64,000 nt of DNA, taken from contig JACPBY010000004.1 of assembly GCA_016180065.1 (NCBI GenBank), positions 1-64,000 on the forward strand, given 5' to 3'. This DNA is from Candidatus Woesearchaeota archaeon (lineage in GTDB: Archaea > Nanobdellota > Nanobdellia > Woesearchaeales > UBA10216). The first letter of the stretch is position 1; each line of letters opens with the position of its first letter. A program made the position numbers and the translations under genes. The notes beneath the pieces were generated by a model that saw only the letters and a list, made by a program, of their open reading frames with translations, did no database searches and was not told where the DNA came from. Shown here in pieces: positions 11,113-50,393 of this stretch.

Positions 11113-11229
11113 TGCGGCGGCCGGGACTTCCAACGCGCCTAGCGCTGAAAGCTGCAAACGCCAGTGCGCATGATTGAACCCGGACCATCAGCTTGGAAGG
11201 CTGAGGTCATGCCGTTAGACCACCGCCGC
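11113..11229 (-). tRNA. tRNA-Gly(UCC) with a 46-nt intron in the T-loop
   Basis: The acceptor GCGGCGG pairs with CCGCCGC. The D-arm is GTC...GAC, the anticodon stem TCAGC/GCTGA encloses the loop CTTCCAA (anticodon TCC), and the T-stem is CCGGG/CCCGG. The T-loop is interrupted by an insertion at 11127-11172. Folding the precursor gives a bulge-helix-bulge: T-stem, 4-bp helix TTCA/TGGA, 3-nt bulges ATC and AGT, then a 6-bp helix ATGCGC/GCGCGT. Cutting at the standard position in each bulge leaves a 7-nt T-loop TTCAATT and a mature tRNA of 71 nt. The intron therefore lies between positions 59 and 60. No CCA is encoded. Confidence 0.85.
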
Positions 11230-11607
11230 AATAAGGGAACTCGTCGCTCCCTTATCAGCCCCTATAAAAAAGGGTCAATCGGAAAACGGGCTATTCAGCC
11301 TTTTAAAAATATTGTTGCTGAAGACTGGCGCAGACACTGTTTCTGCATCCGCGGCAGCCCCATCACAACAGTTATTTCAGTCTTGATATGCTTTGCCCCA
11401 AAAATATCGGAATTTTTCCGTAAAAGCCGGAGAAACTTCTGGCAGAAGCGCAATTCTTTCGCAAACACCTGAAAACTGCGAATATCTTACGGCTTTCCCG
11501 AAAATTTTTCCTAACTGGAAGCGAAAAAGTTAAATATAACTTAAACTCTAACACTTCGCACGGGGCTTGACACCTGACGGCAGCAGCTGTTTCTGCCTTC
11601 TTTTTTC
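11230..11607. other. Intergenic region with hairpin, dispersed motifs and possible short transcript
   Basis: Gene-free stretch of 378 bases. It holds an inverted repeat ATAAGGGA/TCCCTTAT (11231-11255) next to the tRNA-Gly 5' end. It also has a copy of the AAGGGTCAATC motif shared with tRNA-Arg introns (11266-11288) and AT-rich pieces around 11405-11510 resembling other intergenic regions (CTTACGG, TTTTCGG). A TATA-like gttaaatata at 11529 is followed by a GGCAG/CTGCC hairpin and a T-run at 11577-11606, which could mark a very short plus-strand RNA. I cannot assign an RNA family. Confidence 0.35.
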
Positions 11608-30335: not shown

Positions 30336-30410
30336 CGCCCCCTCCGGGATTTGAACCCGGATTAAAAGCTCCGGAAGCTCTTGTCATAGTCCGGATTAGA
30401 CCAAGGGGGC
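30336..30410 (-). tRNA. tRNA-Arg(CCG)
   Basis: Uninterrupted tRNA of 75 nt: acceptor GCCCCCT/AGGGGGC, anticodon stem AGAGC/GCTTT around the loop TTCCGGA (anticodon CCG), T-arm CCGGG-TTCAAAT-CCCGG. The D-loop has GGA, giving A20, an arginine identity base. Discriminator G, CCA not encoded. It lies 17 bases downstream of the next tRNA gene on the same strand. Confidence 0.9.
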
Positions 30411-30427: not shown

Positions 30428-30555
30428 CGCCCCCACTGGGAATTGAACCCAGATCTCAGCCTTGCCGTGTCGTTTTTTGGTTGAGCTTTTTGCCCACCAC
30501 AGTGGGGAAAAAGGTCATTCGCGGGGCCGCATCTTGTCCGTTGGACCATAGGGGC
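30428..30555 (-). tRNA. tRNA-Arg, probable anticodon GCG, with about 56-nt intron
   Basis: The acceptor GCCCCTA pairs with TGGGGGC, the D-loop has GGA (A20), the anticodon stem is CGGCC/GGCTG, and the T-arm is CTGGG-TTCAATT-CCCAG with discriminator G. The anticodon loop is interrupted, probably at the usual 37/38 site (intron 30463-30518). This gives CCGCGAA with anticodon GCG. Base 33 would then be C instead of the near-universal U, so either this is a genuine oddity or the splice sites differ. The intron contains a CCCAC/GTGGG hairpin and a core shared with the intron of tRNA-Arg at 50266-50393. Confidence 0.65.
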
Positions 30556-44397: not shown

Positions 44398-44552
44398 GCC
44401 CCGGTAGCTTAGACGCTGCCAACAGCGGAGCAACAGGTGGAGCGAGTGACTGTTAACCTCGTTGCCTATACAACTTGGTGAGAAATCACTAGGTCGCCAG
44501 TTCGAGACGCTTTTAAGCGAACGCTTGAGGCGGGAATCTCTGGCCCGGGGCG
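44398..44552 (+). tRNA. tRNA-Asn(GUU) with three introns (D-loop, anticodon loop, T-loop)
   Basis: The acceptor is GCCCCGG/CCGGGGC with discriminator G. The anticodon stem AGTGA/TCACT carries CTGTTA..A, anticodon GTT. Intron 1 (about 44413-44433, 21 nt) sits in the D-loop, where CGCTG/CAGCG forms a hairpin and GCTT/GAGC the 4-bp helix with bulges AGA and AAC. Intron 2 (44456-44484, 29 nt) is at 37/38 and contains GTTG/CAAC. Intron 3 (44507-44538, 32 nt) is in the T-loop: T-stem GCCAG/CTGGC, helix TTCG/GGAA (last pair mismatched), bulges AGA and TCT, helix CGCTTT/GAGGCG. Removing all three leaves 73 nt with an 8-nt D-loop and the T-loop TTCGAGT. Confidence 0.85.
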
Positions 44553-50265: not shown

Positions 50266-50393
50266 TGAGCCCGCCGGGATTTGAACCCGGATCAATCGGT
50301 TTCCACTGACTTCGTTCGTAGTTTTTTGATTGACCTTTTTCGCAAAAAGGCCACCCGAAGCCGATCGCACTGTCCGGATTGTGCTACAGGCCC
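50266..50393 (-). tRNA. tRNA-Arg(UCG) with about 54-nt intron
   Basis: The acceptor GGGCCTG pairs with CGGGCTC (two G-T pairs), discriminator A. The D-arm is GCAC/GTGC with GGA (A20), the anticodon stem ATCGG/CCGAT and loop CTTCGG..A give anticodon TCG, and the T-arm is CCGGG-TTCAAAT-CCCGG. The intron (50301-50354) is at the usual 37/38 site. It contains a 10-bp hairpin TGGCCTTTTT/AAAAAGGTCA and a core shared with the intron of tRNA-Arg at 30428-30555. Exact splice sites are inferred from position. Confidence 0.82.

What the first reader, a model, noticed from the sequence alone, without database searches (positions are those of the whole stretch)
11113..11229. T-loop intron at position 59/60 with a full bulge-helix-bulge
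In tRNA-Gly the only interruption is in the T-loop. The precursor forms T-stem, 4-bp helix, two 3-nt bulges and a 6-bp outer helix, as a strict endonuclease substrate should. Cutting at the standard points leaves a canonical 7-nt T-loop. The T-loop intron of tRNA-Asn at 44507-44538 is at the same position, so the site may be a lineage-specific insertion hotspot.
Basis: partly seen in the sequence, partly recalled or inferred. Interest (0 to 1): 0.7.

Follow-up and report, generated by a model that had tools for sequence, protein, structure and literature searches.

The report
Archaeal tRNA-Gly with T-loop intron
The tRNA gene that reads the glycine codon GGA in this small uncultured archaeon is broken by a 46-base intron in an unusual place, the T-loop, and sister species show that this is one of many recently gained introns at the same spot, most likely cut out by the ordinary archaeal tRNA-splicing enzyme.

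Summary
Window 11229->11113 (minus strand) is tRNA-Gly(UCC), interrupted only by a 46-nt intron between positions 59 and 60. The precursor forms a strict bulge-helix-bulge (4-bp central helix, two 3-nt bulges, 6-bp intron helix); shuffled introns reach this about 1 time in 10,000. The best proof is comparative. At the same gene locus a congeneric genome has an intronless tRNA-Gly whose T-arm is letter for letter the predicted splice product, while five other congeners carry a 37/38 intron instead. The hotspot idea also holds: three genomes of this Woesearchaeota genus yielded 34 introns at 59/60 (13 of 35, 10 of 29, 11 of 30 tRNA genes parsed), against 1 of 38 in the complete chromosome of GW2011_AR15. 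28 of 34 pair 4/4 in the central helix (0.8 expected), and base 57 co-varies with its intron partner. Site 59/60 is already a known archaeal intron position, so this is a new member of a known kind. Less ordinary are the scale, the recent turnover, shared introns between different tRNAs, and the enzyme: a single alpha-type endonuclease gene, no detected beta subunit, no crenarchaeal-loop insertion. No RNA data were available.

The parts
11173..11229 (-). tRNA-Gly(UCC) 5' exon, positions 1-59 (acceptor 5' strand, D-arm, anticodon arm CUUCCAA, 4-nt variable loop, T-stem 5' strand, UUCAAU)
11127..11172 (-). 46-nt T-loop intron between positions 59 and 60
   Evidence: absent from the intronless G003 ortholog
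11113..11126 (-). tRNA-Gly(UCC) 3' exon: U60, T-stem 3' strand, acceptor 3' strand, A73
11175..11178 (-). 5' strand of the 4-bp central helix (U54 U55 C56 A57)
   Evidence: 4 of 4 pairs with 11129-11132
11129..11132 (-). 3' strand of the 4-bp central helix (intron UGGA)
11172..11174 (-). 5' three-nt bulge A58 U59|C, predicted cut after U59
   Evidence: geometry
11126..11128 (-). 3' three-nt bulge A G|U60, predicted cut before U60
   Evidence: geometry
11166..11171 (-). 5' strand of the 6-bp intron helix AUGCGC
11133..11138 (-). 3' strand of the 6-bp intron helix GCGCGU
11230..11256 (-). dispersed palindrome (GATAAGGG..CCCTTATT) abutting the 5' end of tRNA-Gly; not part of the intron
   Evidence: same element directly 5' of tRNA-Asp, Gly(CCC), Leu(CAG), Ser(TGA), Ser(GCT)
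44398..44552 (+). tRNA-Asn(GUU) with an enlarged D-loop, a 29-nt 37/38 intron and a T-loop intron
44507..44538 (+). 32-nt T-loop intron of tRNA-Asn at 59/60 (central helix 3 of 4 pairs)
50266..50393 (-). tRNA-Arg(UCG) with a 54-nt canonical 37/38 intron, for comparison
30336..30410 (-). tRNA-Arg(CCG), uninterrupted, for comparison

Best explanation
This is a protein-spliced archaeal tRNA intron. The primary transcript folds so that T-stem, 3-nt bulge, 4-bp helix (54-57 with the intron's 3' end), 3-nt bulge and intron helix make a strict BHB. The EndA-family tRNA-splicing endonuclease cuts after U59 and before U60, and a tRNA ligase joins the exons to give an ordinary tRNA-Gly(UCC) with loop UUCAAUU. 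Shown here: the anatomy, its exceeding chance, the exact empty site in an orthologous gene, and an EndA gene in the genome. Inferred: transcription, cutting, ligation. The intron was gained recently at this locus. Position 59/60 recurs in this genus most likely because the T-loop is the geometric twin of the anticodon loop: a 5-bp stem closing a 7-nt loop, in which only the gap between loop bases 6 and 7 (37/38 or 59/60) gives a symmetric BHB stacked on a tRNA stem. Introns that spread between tRNA genes would therefore be tolerated there (inferred).
For: Strict BHB, shuffle frequency 1e-4; BHB arm as stable as the best fold. Empty sites: in five isoacceptor groups (Gly UCC, Gly GCC, His GUG, Gln CUG, Val GAC) removing the predicted intron gives a T-arm identical to an intronless gene. 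The tRNA-Gly(UCC) locus shares flanking sequence with the window in G003, G005, G006 and G007, yet it is intronless in G003 and has a 37/38 intron in G001, G002, G005, G006, G007. 34 introns at 59/60 in three genomes; 28 of 34 with 4/4 central pairs against 0.84 expected; 0 to 3 of 34 when the register is slid by 1-4 nt; nt 60 is T in all; base 57 and its partner co-vary (A-T 24, G-C 5; Fisher p = 2e-4). One EndA gene with both Pfam domains. The tRNA is needed: GGA is used 110 times in 11 genes and only one copy was found. Homologous introns sit at the same site in tRNA-Gly(GCC) of G003, Pro(CGG) of G017 and Ala(CGC) of G018 (z = 7.6, 6.6, 4.6).
Against: No RNA data. Only 14 of 34 T-loop introns are fully strict (4/4 central, at least 3 bp directly adjacent in the intron), so a pure strict-geometry rule does not explain all of them, and D-loop introns also occur. 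The parser gives a small score bonus for BHB pairs and searched only 59/60 in the T-arm, so other T-arm sites are under-counted (one 53/54-like case seen in G025). The genome is an 88% complete draft.
Confidence: 0.88

Rival explanations
1. The gene is a dead copy or the insertion stays in the mature RNA as an enlarged T-loop; no splicing takes place.
For: No transcript data; general tRNA models score it below threshold.
Against: All stems intact, the only copy found, strict BHB beyond chance, T-arm identical to the intronless ortholog once the intron is removed, central-helix pairing kept across 28 of 34 such introns.
Confidence: 0.05
2. The hotspot reflects where a mobile element inserts (target-site preference, reverse splicing or gene conversion at the conserved T-arm), not what the endonuclease tolerates.
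For: Related introns at 59/60 in different tRNAs; one intron family CAGCCCTTTTG..CAAAAGCGCTGG in four or five tRNAs of G007; anticodon-loop introns share a repeat that also lies just outside tRNA genes.
Against: Intron sequences are otherwise diverse (13-73 nt); no transposase or target duplication was sought or seen; the same geometry serves 37/38 and 59/60.
Confidence: 0.3
3. A broad-specificity endonuclease with a second (beta) subunit, missed here, does the cutting, as in Nanoarchaeum and Crenarchaeota, so the site needs no special explanation.
For: The closest solved relative is the N. equitans alpha subunit of an (alpha beta)2 enzyme; relaxed BHBs are common here.
Against: One full EndA per genome in 27 of 29 genomes searched, all 18 near-complete ones included; two short G013 hits look like one gene broken at a contig end; the other extra hits are weak and the one examined falls in a transketolase-like gene. 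A beta-subunit model gave no match in the own genome and only weak, sub-cut-off matches elsewhere, most of them to the alpha gene itself.
Confidence: 0.25

Closest known systems
Archaeal noncanonical-position tRNA introns (Crenarchaeota, Thermoproteales, Nanoarchaeota)
   Same: BHB introns at sites other than 37/38; 59/60 is named among known sites (PMC4090602); similar introns in unrelated tRNAs, read as transposition (Fujishima 2010, as cited in PMC4090602 and PMC4033280).
   Different: Those lineages spread introns over many positions; in this genus 59/60 alone rivals 37/38. Host is a Woesearchaeota (DPANN) with one detected alpha-type EndA and no crenarchaeal-loop insertion.
Canonical 37/38 tRNA intron
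   Same: Sixth/seventh base of a 7-nt loop on a 5-bp stem; same BHB register.
   Different: T-arm instead of anticodon arm; the anticodon and its modification are not involved.
Permuted tRNAs joined at 59/60 (Thermofilum pendens, Cyanidioschyzon merolae; PMC3218864)
   Same: Identical junction and BHB at the T-loop.
   Different: Here exon order is normal; a scan of 1.68 million bases (both strands counted) found no permuted gene.
C. merolae tRNA-Ile(UAU) with D-, anticodon- and T-arm introns (PMC9602550)
   Same: Several introns in one tRNA, as in window tRNA-Asn.
   Different: Its T-arm intron is at 53/54; eukaryotic enzyme.

Membership tests
Archaeal BHB tRNA intron | two 3-nt bulges separated by a 4-bp helix at the exon-intron borders | tested here: met
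Archaeal BHB tRNA intron | helices on both outer sides (tRNA stem and intron helix) | tested here: met
   T-stem 5 of 5 pairs, intron helix 6 pairs
Archaeal BHB tRNA intron | removal leaves a canonical tRNA | tested here: met
   T-arm identical to the intronless G003 ortholog
Archaeal BHB tRNA intron | EndA-family endonuclease encoded in the genome | tested here: met
   L031 1147-1788; PF02778 and PF01974 above cut-off
Archaeal BHB tRNA intron | cutting and ligation observed in RNA | not testable with these tools
   no transcriptome available
Noncanonical 59/60 intron | insertion exactly between 59 and 60 | tested here: met
   junction fixed by ortholog comparison and BHB register
Permuted tRNA | 3' half encoded upstream of the 5' half | tested here: not met
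   normal exon order; scan negative
alpha4 (homotetrameric) EndA | single ~180-200 aa alpha gene and no beta gene | tested here: met
   absence is subject to model sensitivity and draft completeness
alpha4 (homotetrameric) EndA | no crenarchaea-specific loop insertion | tested here: met
   query lacks the 10-residue insertion of S. tokodaii EndA in the alignment; that this insertion is the CSL is from own knowledge
alpha4 (homotetrameric) EndA | homotetramer with narrow specificity | not testable with these tools
   needs the purified protein

The most novel reading that the evidence does not exclude
In a genus of Woesearchaeota, mobile tRNA introns have colonised the T-loop (59/60) as a second canonical site, jumping between tRNA genes and turning over between sister species, and are removed by a homotetrameric, loop-less EndA that cuts relaxed as well as strict BHBs; this would contradict the current rule that only (alpha beta)2, epsilon2 or loop-bearing enzymes permit such introns.
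Probability: 0.35. Interest if true: 0.65.

Novelty: new member of a known kind. Interest (0 to 1): 0.5.

Why it matters
It extends abundant noncanonical tRNA introns to a DPANN lineage for which the held literature library returned no such report. It offers a natural test of how endonuclease type limits intron position: reviews tie noncanonical introns to (alpha beta)2, epsilon2 or loop-bearing enzymes (PMC4033280, PMC6379350), and this lineage seems to have none of these. Orthologous loci with no intron, a 37/38 intron or a 59/60 intron within one genus catch intron turnover in the act. In practice, T-loop introns make standard tRNA finders miss essential genes, so tRNA counts of such genomes are too low.

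Tried and rejected
Group I or other self-splicing intron: 46 nt is too short and no Rfam intron match at the spot. Permuted tRNA: scan negative. beta subunit of the endonuclease: models PF01974, PF02778 and NF007085 found no separate gene in the own genome; the extra weak PF01974 hit lies in a transketolase-like gene. Rfam tRNA searches alone under-detect these genes. A repeat-element HMM from anticodon-loop introns matched other introns and tRNA flanks but said nothing about the tRNA-Gly intron. Pattern search with the intron core gave mostly unspecific hits; the informative ones were the Gly and Pro introns.

Full report
WHAT IS THERE. The gene is on the minus strand, 11229 to 11113. Read 5'->3': GCGGCGG UG GUCUAACGGCAUGAC C UCAGC CUUCCAA GCUGA UGGU CCGGG UUCAAU [46-nt intron] U CCCGG CCGCCGC A. 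The anticodon is UCC. All four stems pair. The intron ends pair as a strict BHB (UUCA/UGGA; bulges AU|C and AG|U; helix AUGCGC/GCGCGU). The BHB arm reaches -28.5 kcal/mol, equal to the unconstrained optimum, against -22.3 +/- 3.1 for shuffled introns. Only 0.01% of 200,000 shuffles give 4/4 central and at least 6 inner pairs. ARAGORN and Rfam at its cut-off miss the gene; Rfam sees a fragment at 21.8 bits.

WHOSE GENOME. The window is contig 11, bases 1-64000, of a 1.06-Mb, 88%-complete genome. Its splicing endonuclease is 58-83% identical to those of Candidatus Woesearchaeota and of the complete chromosome GW2011_AR15, so the host is a Woesearchaeota (DPANN).

COMPARISON AT THE SAME LOCUS. 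tRNA-Gly(UCC) was parsed from relatives. Within the genus, G003 is intronless with T-arm CCGGG TTCAATT CCCGG, exactly the product predicted for the window gene. G001, G002, G005, G006 and G007 have the same loop uninterrupted (G005 differs by one base) but a 54-110-nt intron at 37/38. For G003, G005, G006 and G007 the flanks match the window's flanks, so these are orthologous loci in three different states. Outside the genus, 59/60 introns in tRNA-Gly(UCC) appear in G013, G016 and G017 of the same family and in G034 and G036 of other families of the order.

THE HOTSPOT. A purpose-written parser found 59/60 introns in 13 of 35 tRNA genes of the own genome, 10 of 29 in G003 and 11 of 30 in G007; a further own case (L265) appeared later. 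The isotypes include Asp, Lys, Arg(UCU), Asn, Gly, Gln, Val, Ile, Pro, Tyr and His. The complete AR15 chromosome, parsed the same way, has 25 introns at 37/38 and one at 59/60, in tRNA-Asp, of 38 genes. So the site is old in tRNA-Asp of this wider group and greatly expanded here. Of the 34 introns, 28 pair 4/4 in the central helix, against 0.84 expected from shuffles and 0-3 when the register is slid by one to four bases. Base 57 co-varies with its intron partner (A-T 24, G-C 5; Fisher 2e-4). In five isoacceptor groups the T-arm after removal of the intron equals an intronless gene letter for letter. Fourteen of 34 are strict in every respect; the rest have a displaced intron helix or a central mismatch.

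INTRON MOVEMENT. The window intron is related to 59/60 introns in tRNA-Gly(GCC) of G003, tRNA-Pro(CGG) of G017 and tRNA-Ala(CGC) of G018 (z = 7.6, 6.6, 4.6 against shuffles). G003 holds both an intron-bearing and an intronless tRNA-Gly(GCC), though each lies at a contig end of a draft genome. In G007 one intron family recurs at 59/60 of Arg, Asp, His and Ile, and probably Lys. This resembles the intron transposition reported for Thermoproteales (Fujishima 2010, as cited in PMC4033280 and PMC4090602).

THE ENZYME. One EndA gene (L031 1147-1788) carries both Pfam domains. Its best solved relatives are the N. equitans alpha subunit, M. kandleri EndA and the alpha4 enzyme of M. jannaschii. 27 of 29 genomes searched have EndA, one full gene each, and a beta-subunit model gave no match in the own genome. 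The protein lacks the 10-residue insertion seen in S. tokodaii EndA, which I take to be the crenarchaea-specific loop (own knowledge). Reviews state that alpha4 and alpha2 enzymes of Euryarchaeota cut only canonical BHBs and that relaxed or noncanonical introns go with (alpha beta)2, epsilon2 or loop-bearing enzymes (PMC4033280; PMC6379350). This lineage therefore looks like an exception, or needs an undetected factor.

MECHANISM. The 59/60 gap in the T-loop is the equivalent of 37/38 in the anticodon loop: bases 6 and 7 of a 7-base loop on a 5-bp stem. Both let a symmetric BHB stack on a tRNA stem. That the enzyme's geometry makes 59/60 the natural second site is inferred, not shown. Insertion preference of a mobile intron is the main rival.

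WHAT IS KNOWN. 59/60 is listed among archaeal noncanonical intron sites (PMC4090602) and is the junction of permuted tRNAs in Thermofilum and C. merolae (PMC3218864). No permuted gene was found here. Library searches for Woesearchaeota or DPANN tRNA introns returned no report of this; the library holds open-licence papers only. The intron is therefore a new member of a known kind; its scale and enzyme context are the less ordinary parts.

LIMITS. The genomes are drafts, apart from AR15. The parser searched 59/60 only within the T-arm and gives a small bonus for BHB pairs, though the 3' end of the intron is fixed by the T-stem and acceptor stem. Counts are minima because only stretches, not whole genomes, were read.

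Noticed in passing
L014, L015, L016, L018, L022, L023, L028, L029, L265 (own genome); L118, L119, L120, L121, L131, L135, L137 (G007); L245, L254, L260, L247, L256 (congeners): A multi-copy family of long-variable-arm tRNAs with serine-type features (G73, GCCG acceptor like the genome's tRNA-Ser) but anticodons for Leu (CAG, AAG, GAG), Phe (GAA), Ile (GAT), Arg (CCT) or Glu (CTC), mostly with 59/60 introns. Closely similar copies differ in anticodon between species (L018 CAG vs L131 CCT, 87% alike). Ordinary Ser genes and an A73 Leu(CAG) gene coexist. If charged by SerRS they would misread codons; their role is unknown.
   Followed up: partly
window 11230-11256 and just below 50266; L005, L013, L019, L025, L026 flanks: A dispersed palindrome (GGTTGATAAGGG..CCCTTATT) sits directly against the 5' end of several tRNA genes, tRNA-Gly included, and just 3' of tRNA-Arg(UCG).
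   Followed up: partly
window 50314-50353, 30470-30517; L005, L009, L010, L011, L144, L145: A repeat (G)ACCTTTTTG..CAAAAAGCTCAACCAAAAACG recurs inside anticodon-loop introns of different tRNAs and also just outside tRNA genes, suggesting a mobile intron-like element.
   Followed up: partly
window about 30436-30550, minus strand: A further tRNA-like 3' half (CAAGGCTGAGATCTGGGTTCAATTCCCAGTGGGGGC) preceded by the repeat, probably a tRNA with a 37/38 intron that the tools missed.
   Followed up: no
L024, L021, L030, window 44398-44552: D-loop introns in tRNA-Cys, Met, Trp and probably Asn; the Cys ortholog of G003 lacks it.
   Followed up: partly
L069 (G025): tRNA-Gly(UCC) of another family with an intron apparently at 53/54, just before UUC, plus one in the anticodon loop: a different T-arm site.
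   Followed up: no
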